From Ananas comosus (Eukaryota > Streptophyta > Magnoliopsida > Poales > Bromeliaceae), in the NCBI RefSeq assembly GCF_001540865.1, contig NC_033638.1, forward strand, positions 5,736,795-5,800,794: a stretch of DNA of 64,000 nt, in the 5' to 3' direction. Shown here one piece after another: positions 12,673-34,202 of the stretch. The notes under the pieces are model-generated. The model saw nothing but the letters and a program-made list of their open reading frames with translations. It did no database searches and was not told the origin of the DNA. How positions within the stretch are numbered: position 1 is the first letter of the stretch; every line of letters begins with the position of its first letter. The position numbers were made by a program, and so were the translations under genes.

Positions 12673-12942
12673 TATTTATGAGCAATGCTACTCATACATT
12701 CCAATCGGAATGCATATCTTACATTCTACTCAGCCAATGGGTGGGATGATTTTACTAGTCACATCAAGTAATTTTGGACCTAGCTGTAGTGTTCCGGGGG
12801 TTTGGTATCAGATTGGCTACAGTATTAGCGATTGGTCGACACATCTGGAGAGTGTCGGATTGAATCGGAATCGTTTTTGCACAAAATGGATGCGGAAACA
12901 GACTTGGTGTACTCAAATTAGCAAAACTAAAGTTTTGCCAGT

Positions 12943-13213
12943 TTCGGGCGCCCAGAATATGGTTTGGGTCGCCCAGAACTTGAGTGCTGAACTGAGCTGA
13001 AACTGGAAGCCAATTCGGATCCTATTTTCGGGCACCCGGAAATGGGTCCGAAAGTTCACTTTGTAATTATCGATGGCGTTGACACGTGTCTGGTGGTAGG
13101 TGAGGTCCGCCGGACCAGGTTAGGGGCACATCATATTGCGGGCGGAGGAACCGAAGAGGAGTGTTTGTTCAGTCTGGGAGTTTTGGACGCCCAGAAGTGG
13201 GTTTTGGGCGCCC
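12943..13213 (+). repeat. Phased palindrome array, GGGCGCCC type
   Basis: Five TTYGGGCGCCCAGAA-like palindromes or near-palindromes with centres at about 12949.5, 12970, 13033.5, 13188.5 and 13209.5. The doublet spacings are 20.5 and 21 bp. They lie upstream of the TATA box inside the U3 of LTR A. Possible role: paired sites for a dimeric DNA-binding protein (inference). Confidence 0.7.
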
Positions 13214-13287
13214 GAAAGTGCTGAATTCTGCAGGAGCAATAGGTTTGCATTTCTGTTCTTGAGGCCTATTGTACCATTCCACCTCCC

Positions 13288-13295
13288 TATAAAAG
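13288..13295 (+). promoter_or_regulatory. TATA box of LTR A
   Basis: TATAAAAG about 78 bp downstream of the last palindrome, placed where an LTR promoter is expected. LTR C has a comparable TATATTTA (32708-32715) about 83 bp after its last palindrome. Confidence 0.6.
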
Positions 13296-15246
13296 ATTGG
13301 GTGTGATCCCCTGAGAAGCTTTTTCACCCTTCTTCACAGAGAGACTTTATTTTCGCATTCTAGCCCCTCTAAACTCTCCAAATTGCACGATTCCACCTTG
13401 AGGACTGTAGTTCCAGTAGATTTCCAGCAGCGACCTTCGGCGTTTTGGCTCGTGGGCGACGTAGGAAGCTCCGATTGCTGCGATACTTAGTTTGGTGGTT
13501 AGTAGACTTCTTAGAGTTTTCGTAGAGCCTATTTTGACAGCATTTGATTGAGATTTGTATGGTCAATTTGGCGTTTTTTTGAGCTGCTGCTGTATTGGAG
13601 CTGAAATTTGTCATTTTTATGGTTTTCTTGGATCAATTCTTGAAGGAACCTGGAATTCGGACCTGAAGACATTACTCCATCATACTCCACTTCTTTTGGG
13701 ACTTTTCTTCACCTGAATTGTAGATTGGAAGGTGAGTTTGATATTGAAGTTGGAGAAAATTAAGCTTAATGGCTGAAATTGTGGGTATTGATTGAATTTT
13801 GTTGTTCTTGTGTTTAGACCCTTGGGGAGTGTTGTTGCTGGTCTCAACAGGGTTTTCTAGCGGTTGCTTGCTGTCATCGAGCTCGTGCTAGAGGTGGGTT
13901 AATGATATGCTTACCAGATTCTACGGATTTCCTCCTAAGCCTAGTTGATGTCAGCATGTATATTTTTAGTCTTTGTATATCATGTTATTTAGCTCGAATT
14001 CGTTGATTTGCATACTAATTGTAATATGAATTTGGAACATACAATAGTGATTTAGAATAAATTATACATATTAAACTTAGAACTTGGCTTAGGAGTAAAC
14101 TATCGATTCTATATCGTCATTTTCTCAAACTACCAGATTTAGCTCTAGGAGCCGTAGTTTGTTTGTATCGCTGCAGTTTGTGGACGGTGGATACCCAGAA
14201 TAGTGTAGAATATATTTACACTCGTGCTCGGATGCCGAGATTATTTTACAGTAGTATATAGACTATTTCGGACTGTTGGGTGCCGTTGAGGTTGACGGTG
14301 GACCCAGATTTGCTGTTTTGCATCGGATTGTGCCGAGGGTACGTAGATTATGGTTGTTAGACCAGTTTGATCTTTCTGCTTTGACTATAGCCTGTAAGAG
14401 CTTGATTGAGCTCAGCAGAGACACACTTGTATACTCGGTTGGATAGCGCCCGCGAGTGCCACTCCGGAGTCGGGCTTAGTGCCTTTGCGTTGTTGTCGGT
14501 TTGTCCTGGTTCGACTTGCTCTCCACTGATGACCCAGCGTGGTGGTAGTTAGTGTAGCTTCGGCAGGCGGGACGGGTGTGTTCACAGTCCCTAGTAAGAT
14601 TGGGTCTGAGTTTGCATTTTCTACATATATTAGTATTTGGATCGTGATAGAATAGTGGCATATAGCTGTAGATTTATTCTAGCTTTCTTTACTATTATTG
14701 AGCATACATCTGTAGACTTAGTGGGTGAGCCGTTGAGGTCGGTAGCGGTACCCACTAAGGGCTACTTTTTTTTGCAGTAGTTCTCACACCCAGTTGTGGA
14801 ACCCTTTTGCAGAGCTTTCTTCTTCAGCTGCTGTTGTTGCGGATACAGATCGTGGAAATGGAGTCGCGAGTTAGATCCCTTCCAATGTTGCTACTGATCT
14901 AGAGATTTATCCGCTACAGGTAGTGTTGGTTTTTGGTTCTTGTACATACTGATATTAGATTCTCGCTGGAGCGAGTGTTTTTGTATCTGGATACTATGTA
15001 TGTATTTGAACCGATGTTACCTACATATGTTTTCTTTTAGCAGCTCTATACTACTGGTTGCAGTGTTGTATGATTACAGGTACAGGTACATCTATCGCTT
15101 CGTATACAGAAAAAATTTCTATATATACGGCGGGTCTGTTAGCGCGCCCGGAAAAACGAGTAATCCGGGGCGTGACACTAGCACAATTGCATTTTACTCC
15201 CACAGAGAAAAATTGCAACTGCACTCACAAGTTCCGTTAGTTGATG

Positions 15247-15463
15247 GAGTTTCGAAACTCTCTTCAAGGGAGTTCCGGAACTCGAATTCCCCTTGCACAA
15301 CTATAGTTTGGGTTTTAGAATCCTTCAAGGAATTCTGAAACTTGAAAGTTTTCTAGTGTTCTGCGAAGGTAGGGTTCCAGAATCCCTTGTGATGTTCTAG
15401 AACTCGGAGTTTGGGGGCTTAACACTCTATTCGGGTTCTGAAAGTCCTCATCAAGTTCTAGAA
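15247..15463. repeat. Phased TTCTAGAA/TTCCGGAA palindrome array (about 62-bp tandem units)
   Basis: Eight palindromes have centres at 15253.5, 15276.5, 15316.5, 15336.5, 15378.5, 15398.5, 15439.5 and 15459.5. Spacings are 23, 40, 20, 42, 20, 41 and 20 bp. The first two are perfect 14-mers, GAGTTTCGAAACTC and GAGTTCCGGAACTC. The unit is a roughly 62-bp doublet repeat. The TTCnnGAA core is the plant heat-shock-element half arrangement. The surrounding sequence is probably an older LTR or element into which LTR A inserted (its right target duplicate ends at 15182). Confidence 0.75.
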
Positions 15464-16381
15464 CCCAAAATTTTATGTCTCTAGCTGGTTTAAGCTTTTG
15501 AACGTCGAATTTCATGTCGTTTTCACCCCAACTTGATTCTAACTCACTCGACACTCTTTGTTCTCTCAAATAGCTTCACATATCAATTTCTACCGGCACA
15601 ATTTGGTCAAAGTTCAGTATGGTGTACTAAATTTTAGTATATCATAGGTAATTTCTATATATTATTATCTTTTGAAATCAACTCGTACCTATATTTCTAA
15701 AAAATATTTTAAAAAGTTTTTTAAACTTTTAAAATCAAATAATTTTACTCAAATAAATTAAGAATTTTATCGAAATTCTATCAAATTTAGTAATTTCTCT
15801 AAAGAATATTAGTCTCATATTAAATATAGGGATAAAATCTGATATGCTCTTCAAAGATTTAAAAATATGTTATTTATCCTTGAATGATCAAAATGCCCTT
15901 GTGATCTCAAAAAATTTCTTCAAATATGCTTTGTTCCCTCTAGGGTTTACTAATAAGATTGAGTTTTGGAAGGATATTTTGAGTATTGAAAGATAGGCTT
16001 AAAAATTTTTAATAGTAGTAGCGGGAATAAGCTAAAGCCCTTTAAATATAAATTGAAAATTAATCTTTTTTATATACGAATTAAGATATTGGCTTTTAAA
16101 CTTTTGGATTGTACCCATACCCTTTAACTTAAAATAATATCAGAGCTTAATTTACACCACCCTTTCGCCTAGTATCTTTCTATACTATATAGTTTTATTT
16201 AGTTCGCTCTGTTGGATGTGACTCATGTGATTTATTTAAGGCTATCTATAAAGATACTATCAATTTATTCAAGACGACTATAAAGATATGATCGATCCAA
16301 CGGTTATGATGTATTTCGATACATTCTTGATGGACGGACATGATTAAACATCCTTATATTAGGTTATATATATATAACATA
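15464..16381. other. AT-rich intergenic sequence
   Basis: No gene or bounded element was recognised. A segment near 15840-16020 (GATATGCTCTTCAAAGATTT to AATAGTAGTAGCGG) has a counterpart near 35310-35510, indicating a dispersed repeat of unknown class. Confidence 0.45.
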
Positions 16382-16400
16382 TGGGATTCCCAGCCTAATC

Positions 16401-16600
16401 TTCTTTTTTTTTTTTTTTTTTTTTTTTTTTNGAGGTATTTCATAGAATAAATTTTTTTTTTTTGAGAGATAGGTAGCACGCTACCCGCTTCGTTTATTTC
16501 ATTTAGAAATAAACTTAGCTAGAAATGTGAATCAACTAGGATTCGAACTTGGGTCTCGGGTACCAACCACCAACCCTTTGCCACTTGCTCTAGGGACGAT
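16401..16600 (-). mobile_element. SINE with perfect 19-bp target duplication
   Basis: The direct repeat TGGGATTCCCAGCCTAATC occurs at 16382-16400 and 16601-16619. Between them, on the minus strand, are the tRNA-like head (B box complement at 16539-16549), the hairpin GGTAGCRYGCTACC (16472-16485) and an A-rich 3' region with two homopolymer blocks, one ending at the N (16431). This is the most intact SINE in the window. Confidence 0.92.
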
Positions 16601-16619
16601 TGGGATTCCCAGCCTAATC

Positions 16620-17762
16620 CTAATCCTAATTTTCTTTGACGACTCCATCTCCAAAGATAAGAAAATAGACTCAAAACATCCTACTCTTTTACAGATCATA
16701 AATAAGAACGAACCACAAGAAAAAATCGCCGTCTACATTCCGCACTTAGAAATCAAAATCATGACAGAAGATACGAACTTAATTTTTATAAAGTCTAACA
16801 CCCTCAACCTAGTTTCATTTGGTTTAAACCAGTTTTTCGGTATGAGCATAGTAGGTTTAACTATATTATAAACTGTATGAGAACTAGTAGTACGGGACTA
16901 ACATGACACATACTTAGAGCTACGTTAAAGAAGATGTGTTAAAAATATTACTTCCATATAAAATATCAAACAGAATTAAATTGACCATCCTAACTCTTTG
17001 AGTTGAGCCAGAGTCTTGTAATAATTTTCAACAAACATAACTAACATAATTTGCAAATAATAATTAATAAAATTTTTAAATTAAATTAAATTGTAAACTT
17101 TAATAATTAGTACAATTTAAATTAAAAAAGATTTAAATATATGGAACTTATCGAAACTAAAACTACTTTTGTTCTAACTACCTGACCTATATATGGAAAA
17201 ATCTTAGTTTTACTACCTTATCTTTTAATTTATGTAATTTAATTTATTTAATAGCTTTTTTACTTCACAATTTTAATATAGTATATTATTTTAAATGGAA
17301 ATGAAACAAATCAAAAGTAAGGAATCAAAACTAAAACTTTTAAAGGTTGGATGGTCGGATCAAAACTTTTAAAAGTTAGATAATCCGAACAAAATAAATA
17401 ATAGTTGAAATAAGCTCTATACATTTTTATCAAATCAATTTTAAAAATTTTGCAAACCCTTAAATGAGTGAGGGTATCCTTATCGAATTCTCTAATTTTT
17501 CTATAGTTAATCGACCTATGTTCAATGTCCTAGGCAAGTTTCTTCAAAAATACTCCAAAATTTACGGAGAATCTTTGATAATTAGGTTTGGGAAAGTGTC
17601 GGCGGGGCATGTCACTACCTATCCAAAGATTTAAAAAACTTGTTTAAATTTTTAATATTAAAAAAATTAATTAGATTCGTGAAAAAAAATAAGTCTTTAA
17701 CTTCATAGTGATAAAATTTATTCTACTTTTTCACAAGACAGTACTGCTCTGCTTATAAAATA
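16620..17762. other. AT-rich intergenic sequence
   Basis: No supported gene. The 114-aa ORF spanning 16527-16871 starts inside the SINE and has no recognisable family motif, so it is not called. Confidence 0.5.
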
Positions 17763-17905
17763 TTTTTTAAGAGAAAAATAGCATGCTGCCCTTTTATTTA
17801 TTTTTTTAAAAATAAATTTAATTCAAAATATAAAATAATTAGACTTTAAATTTAAAATTTTGAATATCAGTTGCTAATTTTTTTTGCCACTTGGACATTG
17901 CTTCT
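17763..17905 (-). mobile_element. Degenerate SINE copy
   Basis: Plus-strand order AAGAGAAAAATAGCATGCTG, TTTATTTATTTTTTTAAAAA, TTTGAATATCAGTTGCTAAT and TTTTGCCACTTGGAC matches the SINE layout of 3310-3465 with many substitutions. Confidence 0.55.
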
Positions 17906-17968
17906 AGAACTTGTATATATTTTGAAGTTAGAGATGGCACTTCTTTTCACAATGTTAGTTACTTTTAG

Positions 17969-18812
17969 GGGCTGTTTGGTTGGATGTAGTTGCAGAAACA
18001 GTGTAGTTGGAAATACATCCAATTGCAAATGCTGCAGTTGTAACTACACCTAGTCTGTTTGGTTTTACGCAGTTGCAACTGCTGCAGTTACATTTCTACT
18101 GTTTGGTAATATAAAGCTGATAGTTATATTTGTGAATTTTGTCACCTTTTCAGATAAAGTGGTGAGATTACCTTCACTAAACATAAAATAATTGTATAAG
18201 TTTATTAATCATTTAAATTGACTATTTATAAATAAATAAGTAGATATATATAATATTCTTCAACTTATTAATCGACACATTTAAAATTTTTAATTTATTT
18301 AATTTTAATATGTAAATCAAACTTTAAAATTTAAACGATTCTCTCATTTTTTTTTATCAAATTTAATAATTATAATTAATTAAAACTTATTAAATTAACA
18401 TACACGATCACATTCTATAAAAATTTTTTAAAAAAACTATATTTATATTTTAAATAAAATAAATTTAAAAAATTTAATTTTTTGCACAAAGCTTGTATTG
18501 TCTAAAAAATTTTATTAGTATGAGTTTATTTACAAGTATTTTTATTTACCTATATACATATATTATTTATTTATTTAGCTATTTATTTATTTATTTATTA
18601 TTGTTAATTTATGGGTGATCCTATCCCTCACCAACTGCTGCAGTTGGAACTACGACCAATTTGGATGTAGTTCCAACTGCAGCATTTGGACCTTCTTGTG
18701 TAGTTGGAACTGCAGCAGTTGAACTCAACTACACTAAATCAAACAAAGGAATTGAGGCTGCACGTATTTGCAACTGCACTGCAGTTGCAAATGCGTGCAA
18801 CCAAACAGCCCC
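17969..18812. mobile_element. Tourist-like (PIF/Harbinger) MITE, TSD TTA
   Basis: Terminal inverted repeats GGGGCTGTTTGGTTG and CAACCAAACAGCCCC with the TTA target duplication at 17966-17968 and 18813-18815. The arms contain several GCAGTTG/CAACTGC repeats; the middle is AT-rich. At 844 bp it has no transposase. Confidence 0.88.
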
Positions 18813-18815
18813 TTA

Positions 18816-19084
18816 GGGGAAACTTCAAATACCCGAGGTGGTTTCGCACTTTTTCATTTTAGTACCCTATGATTTAATATTTCGTTAAATTATATATCTC
18901 GAAATGGATAATAAAAAGAGAAAATTGAAACCACAGGGTACTAACTTGATACACTTGAAACCACAGGGTACTAAAATGAAAAATTACGAAACCACACCCA
19001 CAGGGTACCAACTTAATAAACTTTAAACCACAGAATATTAAAATAAAAAAGTGCGAAACCACATGGTATATTTAAAGTTTCCCC
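18816..19084. mobile_element. Second MITE with TTA duplication, directly abutting the first
   Basis: Terminal repeats GGGGAAACTTCAAATA and TATTTAAAGTTTCCCC, flanked by TTA at 18813-18815 (shared with the preceding element) and 19085-19087. The interior holds several copies of GAAACCACAGGGTACTAA. Length 269 bp. Confidence 0.85.
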
Positions 19085-19099
19085 TTATTTTTACGAAGT

Positions 19100-19390
19100 T
19101 GATGTGAAGTGGCGCACTCTCATTAGTGGAGATCCGAGCGGGGCGCATTTGGAATTGGCACCTACTGGCTAGGTCAGGCACTCCGGGCAGGCCTCCGCAC
19201 CGAGCACACGGGCGTCCCATGAGTGCAGACAAGATGGGGTACAGACTGCCGGGCATCTCCAAGGCGCGACCCAATCACGCGATGAATGCCCGCCGAGCAG
19301 GCGTTCGTATTGGCGAGTCACGGGGCAAATGGAAGCACTGTCACATCAGAGGATCTGTGCAAAACAGACAGGGTGTTCTAGGAATTTCAT
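19100..19390. other. GC-rich island of unknown nature
   Basis: A GC-rich stretch of about 290 bp in AT-rich surroundings, with open frames on both strands (88 aa plus, 78 aa minus). Neither translation shows a motif I recognise. It could be a captured exon or decayed repeat. No splice-site pattern supports a gene. Confidence 0.3.
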
Positions 19391-19994
19391 AAACAGGATA
19401 AATTACAAGTTTGGTGGTATTCACACTATAGGACGATGGCATTTAGTTTTCAAAATTTTAATTTATTATAATTTTGACTTAAATTTTTAAAATTATTATA
19501 ATTAAGTCTTATAATTTAATCTTATCGACTCAATATTAATATATTACTGATTTGAAAGTAATATAACAGTATTTTGATTGGTATTGTGGCAACAATTAAA
19601 ATGTCACATTGCTTTTATATCAGTGATTCGCCAAGGCTTAGTAAACTAAATTGGGTTGTGATACTTAATTACAAGTTCGAAAAGTTCGAGCTGGAAATTG
19701 AAAAAAATAAAGTTTGAGGACGAAATTATTACTTATTTGATAGTTATGGGACCAAACGTGCAATTTACTTTGAAATTATATTAAGGGTAAACTCAAATTT
19801 GCTCTTATGTAGTATGGCATTTTTTTGTCTTACCACTCCAAAGTTCAGAAAGTTGCACTTAACTATCCTATATATAATATAGTGCAGTTTTATTTTGTCA
19901 CCCTGTGGTTCAAAAAGATACACTTATTTTGCTATAAAAAATTAATATTAAATAAAGTATTACCCTATGGTTTTCAGAAAATTTTACTTTATTA
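19391..19994. other. AT-rich intergenic sequence
   Basis: Decayed non-coding repeats are likely (blocks such as AAATTACAAGTTTGGTGG and CACCCTGTGGTTCAAAAAG), without definable ends. Confidence 0.4.
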
Positions 19995-20690
19995 TTTGTT
20001 GACACTGAAAATAAGCACTGGTAAAACAGGCCATCGAAGGTGATTTCGGCAAGAAAGTTTGACGAATAATAGCCAACATGGTTTTCGACATTATACCCGA
20101 ACGCCCTACTTCGGAAATTAAAAGATCGGTTCATTTGAATTAGATTGTTCAAAATTTAGATGGACGCGATCAAGGGCGAGAAATTATGGGGCAATTGAAA
20201 AAAGAAAGGTAGCGAATCGCGGGACTTACAACGACGATCGTGACGACGGACCTATAAACAGCGAAGACAACTATAAAGGAGCAGATCCGAACATCACATC
20301 ACAAATGCTAGTCTATACCACGCATACTAGAACTTGGACTAACTGTAATATAGGTTAAGAGTAGCTGTAACGTAATCAGGGGTAGATTCAACATAATCTC
20401 TATCGCTGTTCGGCCACTGACGATATCGCCCTCCATGACTGTACCACTACAACCATCGGCAGATCACCTCATTCTCACCGACAGATGTACTTTCCAGTGT
20501 TGCACTTCTCCATCCCAGTGGAGTTCCTCGACAATCGCCTTTATCGCTGTTATAGCTGCCAAGAAGCAGTGTATAGCTCTAGTCGTATACAAGCTGTCGA
20601 CCGAGCCACGATGATCGATGTCATTTCAAAGAGCTTGATTGAAGTGTCAACTGTGAGGAAATGGATGCGCGTTCATTCGTATTAGTGCAG
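19995..20690 (+). mobile_element. Gypsy-type LTR fragment F1
   Basis: Aligns with F2 (22860-24353) through blocks such as CAACATGGTTTTCG, ATCGTGACGACGGACC, CCTATAAACAGCGAAGAC and CATCACATCACAAATGC. It serves as the MITE-free counterpart for the CACTA insertion in F2. The right end is cut at about 20690, where a Copia-like LTR begins. Confidence 0.6.
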
Positions 20691-22850
20691 CGAAAATAAT
20701 TTTATTATAAAATATGATCTAATCATGTATATCTTAATATCATAATATTTATGATATTAATATATGTGTACCAAAATCATCTCGTGTAGCACACAAAAAT
20801 TATTATTTTAATCTAATTATAAGAAGGGTTCGAATTTCAACCTTTACTAATTACTAAAATTATTTGATGGTGGATATTAGATTTGAACTTCTGATCCTTT
20901 AATCCGCACAAGTGTCTGACCCCTATGTGTATCTACACAAGACTGTTCTGGGATCATTGCTTTAAACAATCACAATATAATAATAAAACTCTTTTTTTAA
21001 TCTTTTTGTTAATGTGGAGAAAAATTAATTCTCAAAAACTATGATAGCAATATCAAGAGGATTAATTGTAATATAAAAAATCAATTATTATAAAAGGACA
21101 TTTATCTTTTATGATTAAAAACAAGCTCTATATAATTGGGAGGACTCTCTTTCTTTGTTCTCGCTCTTCACTTCATGTCTTAAGATAATTCTCGTCATTG
21201 AGAGATGCCTCTATTTAAAGATGAGGCTATAGGTAGAAATACAAGAAAAAGGTGGAGAAACAGTCTCATAATGCAACAATCCTTTCTATATAATTAATAA
21301 TGCATCTCCCTTTCTCTAAAGGTTGGAGAGGAGAGTAAGGAATGAGAGAATAAGGAAAAAATGTACACCATAAATAAGGGGAGAGAAACTCTTCTTTGAT
21401 GGAGAGGAAAGAAATCACCACGGTAAGTGAGAGGAAGTAAACTTCTCTCATTTAATAGCTGTAGAGTGTTTTCTCTCTCTCTTCATTAGGCCATATGTTG
21501 CTTTTTTCTTTCTTCCACTATCTATCTCACATAATTATAACGTAGTTAATTAAATTCAAGAGAGAGTTATCACCTTTTTCTATAAACTATTGCAACTATT
21601 ACATATAAGTTATAATACTAAATCAAATTTAGTATAAGGCCGCCCCACACAAATTTCATTTTTTTGCAATTTGAGTTTTTTGTGAACCAATATAGCAAAT
21701 AAATTCTCGCTTTGCCATTTTAGTAAACTGGTCTCTGTAAGTTCTCCAAGCACTCGATCACAAGCAGCCTTTATGTTCTATCTCATAGTGAGACGTGATA
21801 CTAAACTCCTTTAATATCACCAACAAAACTCCTTTCGATGGACCAAAATATTTTTAGCTCTCCAAACAAAGTGTGATTGGCCATCTTAATCACTTCCAAT
21901 TGGTCTCACAATCCACAGGTACGTGAGACTTAGCAATATATAGAGATAAACAAAATAGAATGATTAACAGAGTGAATCTCTAGATGTAGTTACTGTTTGA
22001 TTAAATCTTTCGATCACTTGTTTCTATTGAGTTGAGATTATGAATAACTCGTCAGACCCCATTACTCAGTTATATGTCTCATCTGATTAACAACTAATTT
22101 TGTAACGATAAATGAAAACTCCTTTCTATAATACCACGTTATTTTGGTCGAGGTGTTTTTGTATTTTGTAAAACATATAGCATATGACAATTACTTCTCT
22201 ATCAAGGGTGATAGATTCAATCTTGGCATATACCTACATCTACATATGATCCATTGCAGTTAATATGTGTCAAATTTAACCCATAATTAGGGTATAAAGT
22301 ATTTACACTATTAAACTATAATAATCCATATGCAAGATAACCATAGCGCCTTGGGTCAAGGGATCACGCACACCACTATAGCATGGAATCATTCACTGAT
22401 GAGTAAGTAGGCATCCATGTGATTGTTTGTAGTTGGCTATATCGGTGTAATTGTTCTCTAACATTCACCTCTAACATTCACCTATATGCTTGCTCTAATA
22501 TTACCACACTAAAGACTTGAGACTAATCATCTCACAAAGAAAGAATACTATATTGACCTAACTGGATTAATCACCGCCCTCGTAATAATCTTATAATCAG
22601 GAGCATTTAATAATTAATTACGAAAAATATATGTTTCAAATTTCTAATAATTTAGAAATATAGTTCTGCTACCATTAATTTTATGGACGATTAATATATG
22701 CATTTGACAATAATATAAATAAAAAAAATACCAATTTATTAATTTTAATGAAAATACCAATTTATTATCCCAATTAATGAACATATGAGAACCAAGGATA
22801 GTGGATTATCATGCGTCGCTTCGAAACTTGAAATGATGGTTGCAAAAGGT
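20691..22850 (-). mobile_element. Decayed Copia (Angela-like) LTR
   Basis: Shares ordered blocks with the solo LTR at 10627-12405: CTCCTTTCGATGGACC / CTCCTTTCAATGGATC, GGTCTCACAATCCAC / GAGTCTCACAATCCAC, AATAACTCGTCAGACCC / AATAACTCGTCAAACCC and GATAGATTCAATCT / GATAGATTCCATCT. Same minus orientation. Ends are not defined. Confidence 0.6.
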
Positions 22851-22859
22851 TTCGATAGT

Positions 22860-24353: not shown

Positions 24354-26600
24354 CAACCTGGACTGGCGGACAGGTCGGACTGCACCATATGGGCAGCCCG
24401 AAAACAATTTTGTGCTAGGGAATTCTACCAACAGTACCTTATTTGACAATAAATTTTTTTATTGAAATAAAAATAAAATTTAAAGATAGTTTTGTTCAAT
24501 TTTTTGAACCACGAGAAGGCAAAACGAAAATGCATTGTACCATATCAGGGCAAATTTAAGTTTTCTTTTATATTTATGGAAAGAGTAAACATGGATCGGG
24601 AGATTCTATCTTTAAAAAGTTAACTAATTAGCTTAGATTATGTTTAATATTGTTGATTATTAAGTCAAGTACTTTATTATCCAAAATAATGTAACAGAAA
24701 ATAGCTCTGTTTAATTCGAGATGTGTTCAAGCTTTACTCTTAAATTGATCTAAGACCTTTTTTCTATACCTTCGCATTGCCATAGCTGCTACCAACATTC
24801 GGACAAAAGTTATATGAGCATCGTCCCCAAACTACTAGTTTGGGGACAATGCCGATGGGCGCTGCATGGCCAGCGCGTGCCCATCACTACCCTCATTTTC
24901 TCTCCATTCTCACTCTCTAAAAATTTATGCGCATGAAAATTTTTTTTTCATTTTTTCTCATTTCCGTCCGTGCAATGGGCGTGCTGGGGCCACGCAGCGC
25001 CTATCAGCATTGCCCCCAAACTAGTAGTTTTGCTCATACAATTTTTGTTCGGGAAGATTTTCAAATTCTGAGTTTGTTGGCTGCCCTTTATTGCAGACAA
25101 ATGCTAAAAAATAATGTTGAAGCAGAGCACTAATAGATAGTGGGATAAATAGTGATTTTTTTTTTATCGAGTGTATTGTAATTGGGTAAACTGCACTTCT
25201 AGTCCCTAAACTCTCACTCAAGTTTCAATTTGGGACTTTCAATTTTGATGTCAGATATTTTGAACTTTCAGAAATATTTTGCTGTAGTTCTGAAACTTAT
25301 AAATGTATTTTATTGCAATTATTATTTTAGAATAAAAATGATTTACTGTATCCAATTCATCTTATATTTGTATACTATAAAATCAGCCAATCTATCATCC
25401 ATATGTTACATTCATTTGAACAATTTAATTTGTAAAGAGTGAAAAAATTAATACTTAATGAATATAAATAAAATAAATAAATATAAGTACACACAAATGT
25501 CCTGAAAGTAGGTAATCATCTAAATTCAAAATTAAAATAAAACATAGCTGGAAAGTTCGAACCCCTGGCACAATCTACCATGTTAAAATTACATTAGAAC
25601 AATGCTACAATACACTTAAGAGTATAGGTGTAAATCATACACCCTAACCTTCTTGTGGTATAGTAGTTTATTTTCTTATTGTCAATGTTAGTATTTTGTT
25701 AGATTTGTATTTGATTGTTTAGTTGGATAAAAATTAATATTTAAATTTGCTAGAGATAATAAGATTTAAATATTAACTAAAATATAAATATAACTAAATT
25801 AGGATAAATATTTAAATTTATTAGAGATAAACTAAATATAAATTTAAATATTATTTGGAGTAAGAATTCTAAATATACTAGAATTGATGTACGTTTTATT
25901 GTCAGCATCATATAAATACCATGTGGGTTGCTTTTGAAAGTTAGTACGAAAGATAGAGCCTCTTTGGTGGTATTGTACGAGAGAGATAAAGAGAGTTGGC
26001 TATGGTTGCATGCACATAGTGCATGGATTTGTCAAACGAGAGAAATTTTTTTGACGAGAAAATAATAAAAGAGATTCAGAAAGAGGCTTAGGTTTGAAAC
26101 TACTCTGTTATAAAAAAAAAAAAAAAAAATCAACTTTACTCTTCTTTTATTTAATGAATTTTATTTTATCCGTATATTTTTATTTTTTGTTTTTTTCTCT
26201 TTTGTTATTGTATTATTTTTTACTGAAAAGACGGATTTATGGTAAAAATCTAATTTGCTGCTTCCCGTTGCGAAAAATTCTAACAACTTATATCAAATCA
26301 ACAGCAGTCGGTATAATTATAGATTCTTTAAGATTTAATATTAAGACGGGTATTAGATTCTGAATAGTTATTATTATATTTTGTTACTAAAACTATGAAG
26401 AGTTTTTTTTTTAGTCTTTAAATCTAAAAGGGTGTAAAATATATGTACTCTTTATGAGCGAGGTAAAGATGGTATTTTTCATTGAAATATTCTCAGGCTT
26501 TTAATCTTTTTGTCGCGTTGTTACTGGCTGTGAAATAATCAAGCTGTAGAGAAGTAGTACAAGACACGTTACTTTCACGCGTCAGCCCGGGGGGCCCTAG
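24354..26600. other. Intergenic sequence upstream of the protease gene
   Basis: AT-rich, with no supported gene. Two inverted blocks near 24820-24850 and 25010-25030 (ACTAGTTTGGGGACAATGCC / GCATTGCCCCCAAACTAGTA) enclose about 170 bp and may be a small foldback element. A poly-A run is at about 26112-26129. Confidence 0.4.
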
Positions 26601-26603
26601 CTC

Positions 26604-26613
26604 TATATGTATA
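26604..26613 (+). promoter_or_regulatory. Putative TATA element of the protease gene
   Basis: TATATGTATA lies 97-106 bp upstream of the chosen ATG (26710), compatible with a 5' leader of about 70 bases. A GGGGCCC motif is at 26591-26597. Placement only; no direct evidence of use. Confidence 0.45.
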
Positions 26614-26709
26614 GGGCACCCCCAACCCTCCGGCTCCTCTTGCAAGTTGCAACCCAGTGAACCCGCCCTCCAATTAATCCAGCTCTGTCACTCTCTTTCT
26701 CGCACCGCC

Positions 26710-27783
26710 ATGTCGACAATGGCTGCAGGGGCCACCCTTTCCCTGCTGGTCCTCCTCCTAATAACGTCCTCTTCCTCCTCAGGGGCAGCTTCCTCCCCTG
26801 GCGGCTCCTGCTCGGTGCCTCCGGACGGGGGCTCGACGCTGCGCATCATCCACGCGTTCGGCCCCTGCTCCCCGCTCCGCCCGGCGGCCCCGCTGCCCTC
26901 CTGGGCGGACTTCCTCTCCGCCTGCGGCTCCCCCGCCTGCTCGCAGGTCCCCGCCCCGTCCTGCAGCCCCGCCAACTCCTGCTCCTTCAACATGAGCTAC
27001 GGCGGCTCCTCCCTCCTCGCCGGCCTCGTCCAAGACTCCCTCTCCCTCGCCGCCGACGTCGTCCCCTCCTACACCTTCGGCTGCCTGCAGAGGGTCACCG
27101 GCAGCTCCGCCCCCCCGCAGGGCCTCCTCGGCCTCGGCCGCGGCCCGCTCTCCTTCCTCTCCCAAACCCAGAACCTCTACGGCGGCACCTTCTCCTACTG
27201 TCTGCCCAGCTTCAAGTCGCTCAACTTCTCCGGCACGCTCCGGCTGGGCCCCAAGGGCCAGCCGCAGCGCATCAAGACCACCCCGCTCCTCGCCAACCCC
27301 CACCGCCCTTCCCTCTACTACGTCAACATGACTGGCGTCCGCGTCGGCCGCCGCGTCCTGCCGATCCCCCCCTCCGCCCTCGCCTTCGACCCCGCCACCG
27401 GCGCCGGCACCGTCGTCGACGCCGGCACCATGTTCACGCGCCTGGCGCCGCCGGCGTACGCCGCGCTGCGGGACGAGTTCCGGCGGCGGGTCAGGGCCCC
27501 CCTCGCGCCGCCGCTGGGGGGCTTCGACACGTGCTACAACGTGAGCATCGCGCCGGCGCCGGCGGTGACGTTCCTGTTCGACGGGGCCGCCGTGACGCTG
27601 CCGGAGGACAACGTGCTGATCCACAGCACCGCCGGCACCATCACCTGCCTCGCGATGGCCGCGGCGCCCGACGGGCTGAACGCCGTGCTCAACGTCATCG
27701 CCAACATGCAGCAGCAGAACCACCGCGTGCTCTTCGACGTGCCCAACGCCCGCGTCGGATTCGCACGCGAGATGTGCACGTGA
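26710..27783 (+). CDS. AED3-like nepenthesin-type aspartyl protease, N-lobe deleted
   Basis: A single-exon ORF of 357 aa. ATG 26710 is chosen because it has a good context (CCGCCATGT) and opens a clear signal peptide (residues 1-27: hydrophobic LSLLVLLLI, then Ser/Ala). The upstream in-frame codon at 26647 is TTG. From residue 70 to the end it matches plant secreted A1 aspartyl proteases of the AED3/At1g09750 group: SYTFGCLQ (119-126), GLLGLGRGPLSFLSQT (138-153), SYCLPSFKSLNFSG (162-175), the C-lobe catalytic site VVDAGT (235-240, Asp237; DAGT instead of the usual DSGT) and a MQQQNHRVLFDVPN tail. Potential N-glycosylation at N94, N172, N206 and N277. Family members are near 440-450 aa and have an N-lobe DTSND-type catalytic motif. 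Here residue about 67 (SWADFL) jumps to the region just after that motif. The deletion is in frame, so the protein could be made but should lack proteolysis. Either a natural deletion or an assembly collapse. The CDS is strongly GC-rich. Confidence 0.9.
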   Translation: MSTMAAGATLSLLVLLLITSSSSSGAASSPGGSCSVPPDGGSTLRIIHAFGPCSPLRPAAPLPSWADFLSACGSPACSQVPAPSCSPANSCSFNMSYGGSSLLAGLVQDSLSLAADVVPSYTFGCLQRVTGSSAPPQGLLGLGRGPLSFLSQTQNLYGGTFSYCLPSFKSLNFSGTLRLGPKGQPQRIKTTPLLANPHRPSLYYVNMTGVRVGRRVLPIPPSALAFDPATGAGTVVDAGTMFTRLAPPAYAALRDEFRRRVRAPLAPPLGGFDTCYNVSIAPAPAVTFLFDGAAVTLPEDNVLIHSTAGTITCLAMAAAPDGLNAVLNVIANMQQQNHRVLFDVPNARVGFAREMCT

Positions 27784-28092
27784 TGTGACCACCCAGCGAG
27801 CGAGCAGGAAAGGAATTAATCGATCCTTGTTGTCTTGTTTGCTATAACACTAAATTGGTGTTAATTAGTGTTGTTTTGTTAGTAGCTAGTGTGATGCATG
27901 CATCTTTGGCTGTCTTATTAATTAGTTGTCTTCTGGTGGTGTGTGTTTCTCGTCTTTAATTATTTTCATCGGATGGTGTCTTTTTGGGTCAAAGTGTGAC
28001 AACGAGTCGGGACGCTTGTACGGCGAAAGTTCTTTTTCCTTTTCCCTTTGCCACTAATTAAGTACCGGTTATTTCTTACTTTTTTTATGTAT
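27784..28092. other. 3' flank of the protease gene
   Basis: AT-rich non-coding sequence presumably containing the 3' UTR. No certain poly(A) signal is assigned. It ends at the Pack-MULE terminus. Confidence 0.5.
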
Positions 28093-28703
28093 GGAAAATC
28101 CACTAGTTTTGAGATTTTACATATTCGATCTGATTTTTTAGTGAACTGATCAAAATATTCTTATTATTTTTTTTCTCGTTTTTTCTCTCAATTTTTTTTT
28201 TTTCTTTCTGAAGAAGGCGGCGGAGGCGGGAGGCGGGAGGCGGAAACGACATACATCGCCTCTGCCCCTCATGCTCTCGTCCTTATCTGCGCACACCCCA
28301 CCAGCGACGAAGAGGAAGTGTTTCTCGAAGACGAGAAGAACACCGGCGAGAGGGGAGAGAAAACTCCATTGAGAGCGGTGGCTGCGATAGAGGGCAAGGG
28401 AGAGATCGCGATAAAAAATAATTAATAAAAAAATAAAAAAAAAATTTTCCATATGAAAGATTAAAAATTATATAAGAAGGAAGAAGATAATTAAATTGTA
28501 TTGTTAAAATAATATTACACTATTTTAAAAAAAATTACACTATTTTAAATAAACGTTGCACTCTTTGAGATAAAAATTACACTATTTAAAATCAGATTTA
28601 CACTCTTTAGAATGAAGTTGCATTATTTAGGTGAAATTTATACTATTTTTTTTTCTTCCTCTTCTTTCTCATCCTTTCTTCTCCTTCTCCTCCCTGAAGC
28701 CCT

Positions 28704-29278
28704 ATGAAGAAAGTGGGATGTAGGTCGTTGGTGGCGGCGGCGGCGGGGCACGGCACGGCGCGGTGGAGTAAAGGAGGTGGGATGCAGTCTCTACTGCTGC
28801 TACTGCTGCTGCTGCTGCTCCTGCTGGTACATTCGCATCAGCAGCATCCGTATCCGTGCCTCCGGAGCTCTTGCTTTAATTCCGCGTTGGCGGCCCCATC
28901 AGGTCGGCGCGCTCCGACCATCTGGACATCCTCCGGCGCTACATGAACTACATGGCCTTCTCGGCATGCCCCGACGATCTCCTCTCTGTAGCCGAGGCCC
29001 TCCTCCTTTTCGGCTGCCAGCCTCTCTCTCGTCGTCGCTGCTTCTCCCCAACCGCAGCTCCTTCGCCTCGCCAGCTCCCACGGCGCCATCCCGATCCACC
29101 TCGCCCTCGACGTGGGCGGCGGCACCGGCACCCTGGCCGCGAGGGTCCGCCTTCTCGCCAATGCCACCGTGCTGACGACCACCATGAACCTGGGCGCCCT
29201 TTACTCCTAGGCCGCTACCCTTCGCGGCCTCGTCTCGCTCCACGCCCCGCTCCCAGCAAGGATACTGGATAGTGGGCA
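28704..29278 (+). pseudogene. Plant SAM-dependent methyltransferase (At1g29790-like) fragment
   Basis: Three successive frames together resemble the N-terminal half of a plant family of membrane-anchored SAM-dependent methyltransferases. 28704-28850: an N-terminus with GTARWSK and a Leu-rich anchor (12 Leu, CTG microsatellite). 28940-29060: a segment with RYMNYMAFSACPDDL and LLLFGCQPLSRRRCF. About 29085-29278: the SAM-binding motif I LALDVGGGTGT, followed by TTTMNLGALYS. At least one frameshift and a TAG (29207-29209) break it. The C-terminal half is absent. It lies between the arms of the Pack-MULE, so capture is the simplest explanation. The start ATG lies within the left terminal arm. Not functional as a methyltransferase; transcription is possible but unseen. 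Confidence 0.65.
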
Positions 29279-29400
29279 CTAATTTCTTTTCAATCTTAAC
29301 TTCTTAACCCATAAAATTAGGCATGGTTTTCTCTGATGTATTGTATAAGCTCAAAGATTGTTTGAGTCTACTTGATTTGATCAGTAGTATGTATGCTAGC

Positions 29401-31245
29401 AGTCACGTTCCGGATTACACGTTTTCTTGGGCACCCTGACAGACCTGCTGTATACAAAGAAATTTTTTTTGTATACGAAGCGATAGTTGTACCTGTAAAC
29501 AAACCAAGCTACAATCATAAGGTAAAGAGCTACTAAACTGAACTGAATATATAAATAAACATCAATTTCACTATACATACAAAGTCTCCCAGATACAACA
29601 TCTCTTGCTCCAGCGAATAACTAGCATAAGTATGTATATGAACAAAAACTAAAACTATCTGCAGCTGGTACTCCTCTAGTACTGTAACCAGGGAAAGGAT
29701 CTAGCTCGCGACTCCCTTTTCACGATCAGAATCGGTGACAGCAGCAGCCACAGAAAAAGGCTCTGCAAAAAGGGGTCAACAACTGGGTGTGAGAAATACT
29801 GCAAAAAGAAGTAGTCCTCAGTGGGTACTGCTATCGACCTCAACGGCTCATCCACTAAGTCTACAGAAAGTATGCAGAAGGATAGTAAAGTTAGCTGGTA
29901 AAACTCTACAGCTATATGCTACTATACTATCTCTACCCAACACTAGCTATCTGTAGATATACGAAAAATGCAATCTCTGACCTAACTGACTAGGGACTGT
30001 GAACGCACCCGTCCCGCCTATCGAAGCTACACTAACCACCACCACGTTAGGTTGTTGGTGGAGAGCAAGTCCAACCAGGACACTATGACATCAACGCAAA
30101 AGTACAAAACCTGACTCCGGAGTGGCACTCGTGGGCGCTACCCAACCGAGTATGCAAGCGTGTCTCTGTCGAGCTCAATTAGGCTCTCACAAGTTATAAT
30201 CAAAGCAAATGGGTCTAACTGGTCTAACAACCAAAGCTCACGTGCCCTCGGCACAATCTGATGCAAATACAGAAATCTGGGTCCATCATCAACCGCGACG
30301 ACATCCGACAATCCGGAACAGTCTACATACTACTGTAAAAATAAACTCGGCATCCCAGCACGAGTGTAAACTCATCCTACACTAATCTGGATATCCATCG
30401 CATACTAACAGCGACGATACAATAAAACCACAGCTCCTAAAGCTAAATATGGTAATTTTTAGAAATGAAAATGTAGGATCGATCTATATATTTTTTCCTA
30501 AGTCAATACCAAGTCTAACATGTAAAATTAAATACTAGCTTAACTCCAAATTTAGATTTTATATTCTAATCTATGAATTCAAGTACTAGCAATAAAATAA
30601 ACCAAGAATACATATCGACTATACTAAAACTTAGAAGGTATTCCGACGATTTCGGTAAACTTCAACCCACCTCAAAAAGCTCGTCCAACTACGGCGAGAA
30701 GTCGAAATGAGGGAAAACACGCGCTCGCCCGGCCTCTCAACGACGTAACCGCGACGCACGCGCTCCCGAATGGCCCTCCGAATCGGCGTCGGAAATCTCC
30801 TAAGCTCAAATTGGATCTCCACCTCAAACACGATCCAAATACTAGAGAGAAAAAGGATCTCAGCTAACCAAGTTGATAAAGATGAGGGTGAGTAGGGGGG
30901 CAACCTTATCCGCCAACAACAAAGAAAAAGACCATAATGCCCCTTTACCAACTCCACATGATAGCTGGAGTACCGGTACACGATTTGGTTACCGGTATTC
31001 AGCTTCTCAACCCGCAAGCTCGCGCACAAGGTACCGGTACCAACCCAATGCCGTACCGGTACTCAACACTAAAATCCTGCACTTTGCGGATTTCAGCGTC
31101 AAAACTCTACTCTCGTCTCGAGTCTAGTCCGTTTTGCGTCCATTTTGCGCGAAAACGACTCCGACTGGTCCCGATACTCTCCATATGTGTCGACAAGCCT
31201 CAGATGCTGAAGTCATACAGGGTGCAGAACACCAGGGATACTACA
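29401..31245 (-). mobile_element. Gypsy LTR B, nested in the Pack-MULE
   Basis: Minus-strand copy of the LTR family of A, C and D. It starts TGTAGTATCCCTGGTG (plus end at 31245) and ends CGTGAC near 29401. The shared GTATACAAAGAAATTTTTTT..GTACCTGTA block is at 29450-29495. No internal domain. Flanks CTAGC and AGCGC do not form a clear target duplication. Its U3 carries GTACCGGTAC palindromes like LTR C. Confidence 0.8.
30970..31062 (-). repeat. Phased palindrome array, GTACCGGTAC type (LTR B)
   Basis: Four sites: 30970-30979, 30989-30998 (degenerate TTACCGGTAT), 31031-31040 and 31053-31062. Centre spacings are 19, 42 and 22 bp. Confidence 0.75.
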
Positions 31246-32332
31246 AGCGCTTCTTTCTAAATAGTGCTGATGCGGATGCCGCCACCGCCACCAAGGGCCC
31301 GCATCCTACTCTCTCCGTAGGGCTTCAGGGAGGAGAAGGAGAAGAAAGACGGAGAAAGAAGAGGAAGAAAAAAAATAGTGTAAATTGGAGGAAGAAGAAG
31401 AAAAAAAAATGGTGTAAATTCCACCTAAATAGTGCAAATTCACCCTAAAGAGTATAAATCTGATACCAAAGAGTACAATTTCTGTCTCAAATAGTGCAAT
31501 GTTTATTTAAAATAGTGTAATTTTTTTAAAAATAGTGTAACATTATTTTAACAGTACAATTCATTATTTTCTTCCTTTTTATATGATTTTTAATTTTTCA
31601 TGTAGAAAAAAAATATTTTTTTATATTTTATTTTTTCTTTATAACTTTTTTTAGTCATGATCTCTCCCTTGCCCTTTATCGCAGCCACCACTCTCGCCGA
31701 GTTTTATCTCCCTCTTGCCGGTGTGCTTCTCATCCCTAAGAAGCACTTCCTCTTCGTCGCCGGCGGCGGTGGCGGGCTGCGGAGGTAGTGGAGAAGGGTC
31801 GTAGAGAAAAAAAAAAAAAGAATCGCGACGCAGCCTCGGCGGGGTCGGAGGCAAGGAGGGCGGGGGTTGCGCGGGCTAAGGACGAGGCGTGAGGGGTAGA
31901 GGCGAGGCACGCTGTTTTCGCCTCCCGCCTCCGCCGCCTTCTTTGCAAAGGAAAAAAAAATGGAACGAGAGAAAAAAAAAAAAAGAGGAGAGAGAAAAAG
32001 TAATAAGGGCCTTTCGGTCAGTTTATTAAAAGTTCGGACCGAATCTGCAAAATAAAAAAATGTGATCCAATTTTGCAAAAGCCAAAAATTAGTGGATTTT
32101 TTATTAAAAAAGGCGAAAATTCTTCAACGATTATCAATATTAAAAACATTCTTTAAATTTTAAAAAGATTATAACATTCTGTCGAAAATTATGACTAAAT
32201 ATTTATTATGCCCCTCTAGTTGATTACCATTCATGTCCCTTTACTTAAAAATAAATAAATAAATAAAATAAATTTTATAAATTAAATAACTAGTAAGCTT
32301 AAAAAGATAATGGCATAAATTGAACTGAAAAA

Positions 32333-34202
32333 TGTAGTATCTCTAGTGTTTGGTTGCCCGTGAGATTTCAGCATCTGAAGCTTTGTCGACACATCTGGAG
32401 AGTGTCGGGACAAGTTGGAGTCGTTTTGGCGTCAAATGAACGCAAAATGGACTCAGTGCGACGCAAGAGCAGAGTTTGACATTGAATTCTGCAAAGTGCA
32501 AGTTTTCAATATTGAGTACCGGTACGATGCAGGGGAGTACCGGTACCCCAGTGTATTCTCCGAACTGCTGCTCTCGGGTTGCGATAATTGATGCTGAGTA
32601 CCGGTACGGCATCGGGCTGGTACCGGTACTCCAGCTGGGATGTTGAGTTGGTGAGGGGTAGAATAGTCTTTTTGGTTGGTGGATAAGCATGCCACCTACT
32701 CCATCTTTATATTTATCCACTTCATCTGCTGAGAAAAGGTAATTATTCTTTTCCTCTCTCTCTCTAGTTTTAATTGTGTGCTTGATGGAGGCCACGACTT
32801 GAGCTCGGATCGACGTCGACGTTGCACCGAGGAGCCGTTTGAGCGCGTGGATGTCGCGGTTGCGTCGTTGGAGGCAGGGTGAGCGCGTGTTTTTCCTTCT
32901 CTCGACTTCTCACCGTAGTTGGACTAGATTTTCGAGGTGGGTTGAAGTTTTCCGAAATCGCCGGAACATCTCCTAAGCTTTTATATCGTCAACATGTATC
33001 ATGTGTTTAATTTCTTGCTAGTACTCGAATTGATGGATAAGGCTTAAAATCTGAATTTGGAGTTAAGTAGTAGTAGTATAATTTTATATGTTGGACTTGA
33101 AATTGAATTAGGAGATAACTATAGATCCTACACTATCAGTTTCTGAAAACTATCAGATTTACCTTTAAAAGCTGTGGTTTATATGTATTGTCGTAGTTTG
33201 TATGCGGTAAATACCCAGATTAGTATAGGATGGGTTTGCGCTCGTGCTGGGATGCCGAGTTTATTTTACAGTAGTGTGTAGACTGTTTCGGGTTGACGAG
33301 TGCCTTCGCGGTTGACGGTGGACCCAGATTTTTATATTTGAATCAGATTGTGCCAAGGGCACGTGAGCTTTGATTGTTAGACTCATTTGCTTTGATTATA
33401 GCCTGTAAGAGCCTAATTGAGCTCAGCAGAGACACCCTTGCATACTCGGTTGGGTAGCGCCCACGAGTGCCACTCTGGAGTCGGGCTTTGTGCTTTTGCG
33501 TTGTTGTCGCAGCAGTCCTGTTTGGGCGGTGCTTTAGAACCGGCCACCTCAATGGTGGTGTGTGGTATAACTCGCACGCAAGCGGGACGGGCCTGTTGGC
33601 AGTCCCTTCACAGTATAGTCGTTGTTGCAGGGGATGCATATCTATAGATAACTAGAGTTGGTTAATGATAGTATAGGGGCATATAGCTGTAGGGTTTCCA
33701 GCTTTCCTTACTATCTCTTGCATATCAGTCTGTAGACTTAGTGGGTGAGCCGTTGAGGTCGGTAGCAGTACTCACTGAGGACTACTTTTTGCAGTAGTTC
33801 TCACACCTAGTTGTTGAGCTCTTTTTGCAAAGCCTCCTTCTGTGGCTGCTGCTGTCGCCGATACTGATCGTGGAAAGGGAGTTGCGAGTTAGATCCCTTC
33901 CCTGGTTGTAGTTCTAGAGGAGTACCATCTACAGGTGGTTTTGGGTTTTTGGTTTATATACATACTTGCTGGTACTCGCTGGAGCGAGTGATATCTGTAT
34001 CTTGGAGACTACGTATGTATAATGAACCTGATGTTTATTTATATATGTTTATAGTTCTGTTAGCAGCTCTATACTACTAGTTGTAGTTTTGTAAGATTAC
34101 AGGTACAGGTACAGCTATCGTTTCGTATACAGAGGAATTTTTTTTGTATACGACGAGTTTGTCGGCGTGTCCGGGATAAACGTGGAAATCCGGGGGGTGA
34201 CA
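32333..34202 (+). mobile_element. Solo LTR C of the same Gypsy family, TSD AAAAA
   Basis: Starts TGTAGTATCTCTAGTG and ends CCGGGGGGTGACA, with AAAAA on both sides (32328-32332 and 34203-34207). Length 1870 bp. Palindromes at 32516-32629 precede a TATA-like TATATTTA (32708-32715). The 3' part is near-collinear with LTR A. No internal domain. The A-rich duplication is weaker evidence than that of LTR A. Confidence 0.85.
32516..32629 (+). repeat. Phased palindrome array, GTACCGGTAC type (LTR C)
   Basis: Four perfect GTACCGGTAC decamers at 32516-32525, 32537-32546, 32598-32607 and 32620-32629. Centre spacings are 21, 61 and 22 bp, that is, two doublets. Each contains a KpnI-like half and an AgeI-like ACCGGT centre. 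They lie about 83-190 bp upstream of the presumed TATA box. Confidence 0.85.

What the first reader, a model, noticed from the sequence alone, without database searches (positions are those of the whole stretch)
12943..32629. Conserved geometry, swapped sequence: phased palindrome doublets in LTR U3 regions
LTRs A, B and C, the 15.2-kb segment and the chromovirus LTR all carry short palindromes or half-palindromes in doublets 19-23 bp apart, with other gaps often near multiples of about 20-21 bp. The core differs: GGGCGCCC in A, GTACCGGTAC in B and C, TTCTAGAA/TTCCGGAA at 15.2 kb, GCCCGAA in the chromovirus. A versus B/C share the same downstream LTR sequence, so the site appears replaced while the spacing is kept. 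In A and C the last site is about 80 bp before a TATA box. Two helical turns place sites on the same DNA face, suggesting cooperative binding of a dimeric factor; 20-21 nt is also near plant small-RNA length. U3 repeat turnover is known for Tnt1 and Tto1, but I do not know this palindrome-exchange pattern as described.
Basis: partly seen in the sequence, partly recalled or inferred. Interest (0 to 1): 0.78.

Follow-up and report, generated by a model that had tools for sequence, protein, structure and literature searches.

The report
Two-turn palindrome arrays in plant LTRs
Jumping elements in this plant genome carry clusters of short mirror-symmetric DNA words in their promoters, set about 20 letters apart, and the word differs between element families while the spacing stays, as if a paired protein binds them.

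Summary
The doublets are real. LTRs B and C carry four TACCGGTA-cored sites each (centre gaps 22/42/19 and 21/61/22); LTR A five GGGCGCCC-like sites (21/63/155/21); a 15.2-kb array has gaps 23/40/20/42/20/41/20. The chromovirus LTR has only a 20-bp half-site repeat.

In the 382-Mb genome, TACCGGTA pairs with centre spacing 11-41 bp number 11,940; 10,264 lie at 18-23 bp. GGGCGCCC gives 181 pairs, 46 of 50 listed at exactly 21 bp. ATGGCCAT, the tool's own reversed control, gives 231, 41 of 50 listed at 19-23 bp, and repeats several TACCGGTA multi-site layouts.

Cores vary less than neighbouring U3 columns in the B and C clades; in A the evidence is weaker. An in-place swap between A and B/C is not shown: their whole U3 bodies differ. 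TTCTAGAA and TTCCGGAA are not large genome-wide classes.

Best reading: clustered sites for dimeric DNA-binding protein(s) on one helix face, spread and exchanged with U3 modules. The protein is unknown.

The parts
12785..15177 (+). LTR A, solo LTR, 2393 bp, flanked by CTAGC duplication
   Evidence: ends and 5-bp duplication read; an A-type relative follows an integrase frame
12835..12858 (+). conserved U3 head of A (imperfect inverted repeat GACAC..GTGTC)
   Evidence: 705+695 places with up to 2 mismatches vs 6+9 control
12942..12978 (+). A doublet 1: GGGCGCCC 12946-12953 and GGTCGCCC 12967-12974, 21 bp apart
13030..13037 (+). A site 3, GGGCACCC, 63 bp after site 2
13181..13217 (+). A doublet 2: GGACGCCC 13185-13192 and GGGCGCCC 13206-13213, 21 bp apart
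13288..13294 (+). TATA-like box of A, 78.5 bp after the last site centre
15249..15464 (.). 15.2-kb array of degenerate GTTCYRGAAC sites, gaps 23/40/20/42/20/41/20, in the sequence that LTR A interrupts
29402..31245 (-). LTR B (3' boundary degenerate)
30970..31062 (-). B array: TACCGGTA cores centred near 30974, 30993, 31035, 31057 (gaps 19, 42, 22)
32333..34202 (+). LTR C, solo LTR, 1870 bp, flanked by AAAAA duplication
32385..32408 (+). conserved U3 head of C
32516..32546 (+). C doublet 1: GTACCGGTAC at 32516-32525 and 32537-32546, 21 bp apart
32598..32629 (+). C doublet 2: GTACCGGTAC at 32598-32607 and 32620-32629, 22 bp apart
58032..58061 (+). chromovirus LTR: two ATGCCCGAAA half-sites 20 bp apart; not a palindrome doublet by the test used

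Best explanation
The arrays are clustered sites for one or more homodimeric, sequence-specific DNA-binding proteins in the promoter part (U3) of LTR retrotransposons. Each palindrome would hold one dimer. Centres at about 19-23 bp, or multiples such as 40-42 and 61-64, would put neighbouring dimers on the same face of the helix, ending about 80 bp before the TATA box in A and C, and favour cooperative binding. Families differ in core (TACCGGTA, GACCGGTC, GGGCGCCC, ATGGCCAT) because U3 modules are gained, lost and exchanged as blocks, while spacing and two-fold symmetry are kept by selection. Shown here: the sites, the spacing, conservation of cores in the B and C clades, arrays of different length, some same layouts with different cores, and one core in two LTR families that show no similarity outside or next to the array in the stretches read. 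Inferred: deletion as the cause of the short arrays, module exchange, protein binding, dimer, cooperativity, and effect on transcription or silencing.
For: TACCGGTA pairs: 11,940 at spacing 11-41, 10,264 of them at 18-23. Of 98 listed, 83 lie at 19-23 and 7 at 39-41; by spacer cluster, 22 of 31 lie at 19-23. GACCGGTC 14,045 pairs, 46 of 69 listed at 19-23. GGGCGCCC 181 pairs vs 27 control, 46 of 50 listed at exactly 21. ATGGCCAT 231 pairs, 41 of 50 listed at 19-23, several layouts matching TACCGGTA. Core columns vary less than base-matched array columns: C clade, 32 copies, identity P=0.0016, transversions P=0.00035; B clade, 12 copies, 0.0015 and 0.047; A clade, 28 copies, identity P=0.006 for 16-bp sites and 0.015 for 8-bp cores. 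B and C layouts read as deletion variants of the longer array in L030, L039 and L040 (inference). The L089-L091 stretches match B/C-type LTRs only in or next to the array.
Against: No protein, motif match, binding or expression data. In the A clade transversions are not significantly fewer (P=0.25 and 0.23). Copies share ancestry, so P values are not from independent samples. CpG retention in sites is only slightly higher (0.78 vs 0.72; 0.83 vs 0.73; P about 0.14), so site occupancy leaves no clear mark. Spacings of 14-15 and 32-34 in GACCGGTC arrays, 17 in some TACCGGTA and ATGGCCAT arrays and 155 in A are not multiples of two turns. ATGGCCAT pairs lack the one TACCGGTA spacer word tested, so an in-frame core swap is not proven.
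Confidence: 0.62

Rival explanations
1. The arrays are by-products of tandem duplication of about 21-bp units (slippage or template switching in reverse transcription), spread by copying, with no binding function.
For: L039 has a duplicated 21-bp unit and seven sites; array length varies between copies.
Against: Within C the two short spacers are no more alike than shuffles (P=0.77). At 15.2 kb most spacer pairs are not significant: 1 of 6 short and 2 of 6 long below 0.05. Cores are kept better than neighbouring columns. Similar spacing recurs with four cores, and 98 listed TACCGGTA pairs fall into 31 spacer clusters.
Confidence: 0.2
2. A VANC-like anti-silencing system: an element-encoded protein binds its own motif array in non-coding DNA and removes methylation, and motif and protein co-evolve, which is why cores switch between sister families.
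For: Family-specific motif clusters in non-coding element DNA with concerted change inside each element, as described for VANDAL elements (PMC5735166, passages read). One U3 uses one core in the copies counted.
Against: No VANC-like or other extra gene was found or sought; only fragments and an integrase ORF beside an A-type LTR were read. VANC21 motifs are nine bases and arrayed in one orientation in the passages read. One core occurs in two LTR families without homology outside or next to the array. CpG sites in cores are not clearly better kept.
Confidence: 0.13
3. Spacing reflects 20-21-nt small RNAs or phased small-RNA processing, not protein geometry.
Against: Two-fold symmetry is not needed for it; spacing varies 14-23 and peaks differ by core. 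No small-RNA data were available, so this is untested.
Confidence: 0.05

Closest known systems
Tnt1/Retrolyc1/Retrosol (Solanaceae) U3 subfamilies
   Same: Related elements that differ mainly in the U3, seen as modular evolution (PMC1838419, abstract and passages read). Here A and B/C share LTR ends but not the U3 body.
   Different: The two Tnt1 papers have 0 hits for 'palindrom' (passages read). BII boxes bind defence-induced factors (PMC3316501, passages), whereas the factor here is unknown. The one element type tested here is Ty3/gypsy-like.
VANDAL transposons and VANC proteins (Arabidopsis)
   Same: Short family-specific motifs clustered in non-coding element DNA, changing together within an element (PMC5735166, passages read).
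   Different: VANDALs are DNA transposons (recalled). The VANC21 motif is nine bases, arrayed in one orientation and often part of tandem repeats. Here sites are palindromic, spacers inside C are unlike, and no VANC-like protein is known.
Pineapple Del-lineage chromoviruses
   Same: An A-type LTR follows an integrase with a chromodomain-like tail. Del elements are 16.4% of that genome (PMC6022998, passages read).
   Different: That paper's main text has no hit for 'palindrom' or 'tandem'.
Heat-shock elements in plant LTRs (ONSEN type; recalled, no call)
   Same: TTCNNGAA half-sites resemble the 15.2-kb cores.
   Different: TTCTAGAA pairs show only a threefold excess over control and no strong spacing peak here.

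Membership tests
Ty3/gypsy Del/Tekay-like LTR (LTR A type) | LTR with target-site duplication | tested here: met
   CTAGC on both sides of A, AAAAA on both sides of C
Ty3/gypsy Del/Tekay-like LTR (LTR A type) | integrase as the last gag-pol domain before the 3' LTR | tested here: met
   L049 frame with Integrase_H2C2 and SH3_Tf2-1 ends about 50 bp before the start of the match to LTR A; one A-type copy only
Ty3/gypsy Del/Tekay-like LTR (LTR A type) | chromodomain at the integrase end | tested here: inconclusive
   tail looks chromodomain-like by eye; no Pfam chromodomain call
Ty3/gypsy Del/Tekay-like LTR (B/C type) | own integrase beside a B/C-type LTR | tested here: inconclusive
   L071 holds an integrase ORF 66% identical to A's, but it overlaps the stretch expected for the LTR
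VANC-VANDAL type anti-silencing array | element-encoded protein that binds the motif | not tested
   internal regions were not surveyed; only fragments read
VANC-VANDAL type anti-silencing array | motifs dense and in one orientation, in tandem repeats | tested here: not met
   sites are palindromic, so without orientation, and spacers inside C differ
Phased dimer-site array | palindromic core, spacing excess near two helical turns, core conserved above flanks | tested here: met
   A clade weaker; GACCGGTC and ATGGCCAT cores tested for spacing only
Phased dimer-site array | a protein that binds it as a dimer | not testable with these tools
   no binding data

The most novel reading that the evidence does not exclude
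A large part of this genome's LTR retrotransposons compete through a geometric promoter code: two-fold symmetric sites on a roughly 20.7-bp ruler, whose core word can be replaced wholesale (TACCGGTA, GACCGGTC, GGGCGCCC, ATGGCCAT) while the multi-site layout persists, because related dimeric proteins (host or element-encoded) with the same dimer-dimer contact but different DNA words take turns in driving or un-silencing the elements.
Probability: 0.25. Interest if true: 0.9.

Novelty: new variant of a known kind. Interest (0 to 1): 0.72.

Why it matters
It would give a direct, countable handle on how retrotransposons keep their promoters readable by the host while changing sequence. Over 26,000 pairs of four cores at spacing 11-41 bp were counted in one genome, with a spacing rule that can be tested in a reporter. 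If element-encoded proteins bind them, it would extend sequence-specific anti-silencing from DNA transposons to LTR retrotransposons. The cores are also bait for finding the proteins.

Tried and rejected
In-place site exchange between A and B/C: rejected, because the U3 bodies are not clearly homologous. The first version of that test (mean z 3.6) still contained homologous head sequence and was replaced.

TTCCGGAA and TTCTAGAA as large genome-wide classes: 14 vs 17 and 104 vs 34 control. Spacing: 8 of 14 and 15 of 50 listed lie at 19-23 bp. The 15.2-kb array remains a single local case; its copies could not be searched.

CpG-centred methylation sites as the common theme: rejected, since ATGGCCAT has no central CG, and CpG retention is not significant.

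Hairpins: not computed; 8-16-bp loopless palindromes make poor hairpins (reasoning only).

Conservation counted after dropping C-to-T and G-to-A changes favours G+C-rich sites, so it is not used as evidence; the base-matched test replaced it.

Spacer homology between ATGGCCAT and TACCGGTA arrays: the spacer word ATCA, present in 12 of 28 listed 22-bp TACCGGTA spacers in one orientation or the other, was found in 0 ATGGCCAT pairs. So the shared layouts are not simply recent core swaps within that spacer type; other spacer types were not tested.

LTR D at the window end: its U3 lies in a run of N.

Never answered: TACCGGTA pairs at 42-72 bp and mixed TACCGGTA/GGGCGCCC pairs (and repeats of 80 at 84, 87, 89, 92, 94, 96), and copies of the 15.2-kb segment and chromovirus LTR.
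Full report
WHAT WAS CHECKED. The window is G000:C18:5736795-5800794 of a 381,958,007-base genome. Size fits pineapple: the passages read from PMC6022998 give 118,709,778 bp as 31.08 percent of the genome, which works out at about 382 Mb. The species name is therefore an inference. LTR A (12785-15177) and LTR C (32333-34202) are solo LTRs with 5-bp duplications CTAGC and AAAAA. LTR B lies on the minus strand, about 29402-31245. A interrupts the sequence that carries the 15.2-kb array.

THE SITES. C has four GTACCGGTAC sites and B four TACCGGTA-cored ones. A has five GGGCGCCC-like sites. Centre gaps are A 21/63/155/21, B 22/42/19, C 21/61/22. The 15.2-kb stretch has degenerate GTTCYRGAAC sites with gaps 23/40/20/42/20/41/20. 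Against 300 dinucleotide shuffles, palindrome doublets at 18-24 bp are unexpected in A (P=0.003), B and C (0 of 300 each) and 15.2 kb (P=0.003). The chromovirus LTR has none, only two half-sites 20 bp apart.

COPIES OF THESE LTRs. From hits to A's U3, C's U3 and the shared LTR part, 87 loci were fetched, not counting the LTR D stretch; each search scored only its best 40 candidates. Searching the loci and window for the U3 head gave 99 raw places. Of these, 28 A-type, 32 C-type, 12 B-type and 4 long-array copies were used. The 23 left out are loose head matches on the wrong strand or in unrelated sequence, second matches in one locus, and two partial arrays (L028, L060). Loci L001, L033 and L048 duplicate the window and were dropped before the count.

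ARRAY HISTORY. Distances from the head to the first site are nearly constant within a type: 115 in most A copies, 134-137 in most B and C copies. Long copies L030 and L040 have six sites with gaps 21/62/22/42/19, and L039 has seven. C's 21/61/22 and B's 22/42/19 read as deletion variants of that array (inference). L045 lacks the array. In the copies counted, one U3 uses one core.

A AGAINST B/C. Blastn finds homology at LTR positions 1-125 (67-71% identity) and from 1107 of A onward (75-76%). With cores masked and the head excluded, A against C, B and long copies scores a mean z of 1.8, 1.7 and 2.2, single pairs up to 6.0; C against B scores 24.6 (samples of 48-144 pairs). So the U3 body was replaced, or has diverged almost beyond recognition; single sites were not swapped in an otherwise shared U3. 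Both keep a 21-bp doublet followed by a gap of 61-63 bp.

CONSERVATION. Core columns were compared with columns of the same commonest base in the array region. C clade: identity 0.957 vs 0.915 (P=0.0016), transversions 0.5% vs 3.2% (P=0.00035). A clade, 16-bp sites: identity 0.915 vs 0.877 (P=0.006), transversions not significant (P=0.25). B clade: identity 0.948 vs 0.896 (P=0.0015), transversions P=0.047. Copies share ancestry, so these values are guides. CpG pairs in sites are kept slightly more often, but not significantly (P about 0.14 in both A and C).

GENOME-WIDE SPACING. TACCGGTA pairs at centre spacing 11-41 bp: 11,940; at 18-23 bp: 10,264, 86% where an even spread gives 19%. Of the 98 listed forward places (all on one chromosome), 83 lie at 19-23 and 7 at 39-41. 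The spacers fall into 31 clusters, 22 of them at 19-23. GGGCGCCC: 181 vs 27 for the reversed control; 46 of 50 listed lie at exactly 21 bp, with AA at spacer positions 3-4 in 51 and 46 of 52 distinct spacers counted in both orientations, so the wider site is TTNNGGGCGCCCNNAA. TTCTAGAA: 104 vs 34, 15 of 50 listed at 19-23. TTCCGGAA: 14 vs 17, 8 of 14 at 19-23.

A scan of 356 kb of held sequence (overlapping loci counted twice, cores with fewer than two G or C left out) for identical perfect palindromes 11-70 bp apart gave 139 TACCGGTA pairs in 52 loci and 11 GACCGGTC pairs in 3 loci; six other cores had one pair each, and GGGCGCCC had none, since A-type doublets are imperfect. Genome-wide, GACCGGTC gives 14,045 pairs vs 254 control. 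Of 69 listed forward places 46 lie at 19-23; further peaks are at 14-15 (12) and 32-34 (7). The reversed control of TACCGGTA, ATGGCCAT, showed 198 of its 231 pairs at 18-23, so it was searched itself. Of 50 listed, 41 lie at 19-23 and many form arrays. Its layouts 20/52/22, 20/51/22/34/22, 20/63/22/17/23 and 22/17 resemble TACCGGTA layouts 20/52/22, 20/51/23, 20/63/22, 22/17/23 and 20/64/20/22/23; other layouts of both cores have no partner in the lists. So the 231 is not a chance level; the controls of the other cores (27, 17, 34) are nearer one. CTGGCCAG (254) was not examined. ATGGCCAT pairs lack the spacer word ATCA that 12 of 28 listed 22-bp TACCGGTA spacers carry (0 found). So neither core nor that spacer word is shared, only the layout.

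OTHER LTR FAMILIES. L089-L091 form an LTR family that, in the 700-800-bp stretches read, matches the B/C-type LTRs only in or next to the array and carries TACCGGTA arrays with gaps of 19-23 and about 63. Array modules may have passed between families (inference).

ELEMENT TYPE. An A-type LTR in L049 directly follows an open integrase frame (Integrase_H2C2, SH3_Tf2-1) with a chromodomain-like tail by eye, as in Del/Tekay chromoviruses. The link to an integrase is not clean for the C type.

HOW IT PROBABLY WORKS. Symmetric cores, spacing near two helical turns and its multiples, and a position about 80 bp before the TATA box in A and C fit clustered binding of dimeric proteins. Which protein, and whether it activates or removes silencing, is open.

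LITERATURE. Modular U3 change is known for Tnt1 relatives (PMC1838419, passages). Motif arrays that co-evolve with an element protein are known for VANDALs (PMC5735166, passages). Searches (listings only) showed no title or abstract start describing two-turn palindrome arrays with core exchange in plant LTRs. The library holds open-licence papers only and the lists were capped, so absence there is weak evidence.

Noticed in passing
window 12835-12858, 32385-32408 and about 1400 other places: The U3 head GACACATCTGGAGAGTGTCGG, an imperfect inverted repeat, is kept in both A and B/C clades although the U3 body is not: 705+695 places with up to 2 mismatches vs 6+9 for the reversed control. It may be a second protein site.
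   Followed up: partly
L028:2069-2307, L046:2508-2715, L080:220-274: GACCGGTC arrays near fetched LTRs; genome-wide 14,045 pairs, more than TACCGGTA.
   Followed up: partly
G000:C4:6800292, C6:1221783, C1:16878160 and others: ATGGCCAT arrays with multi-site layouts like those of TACCGGTA arrays; letters could not be read.
   Followed up: partly
window 18002-18800: Inverted-repeat element rich in TGCAGTTGCAACTGCA-like palindromes, looks like a MITE or other terminal-repeat element.
   Followed up: no
window 28494-31561: 87% inverted repeat arms (171 bp) around LTR B: B seems to lie inside another element.
   Followed up: no
window 63541-64000 and L069: A further related LTR (D) on the minus strand; its U3 is in a run of N.
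   Followed up: partly
genome-wide control CTGGCCAG: The reversed control of GACCGGTC has 254 pairs, about ten times the controls of GGGCGCCC, TTCCGGAA and TTCTAGAA (27, 17, 34), and may be one more array core.
   Followed up: no
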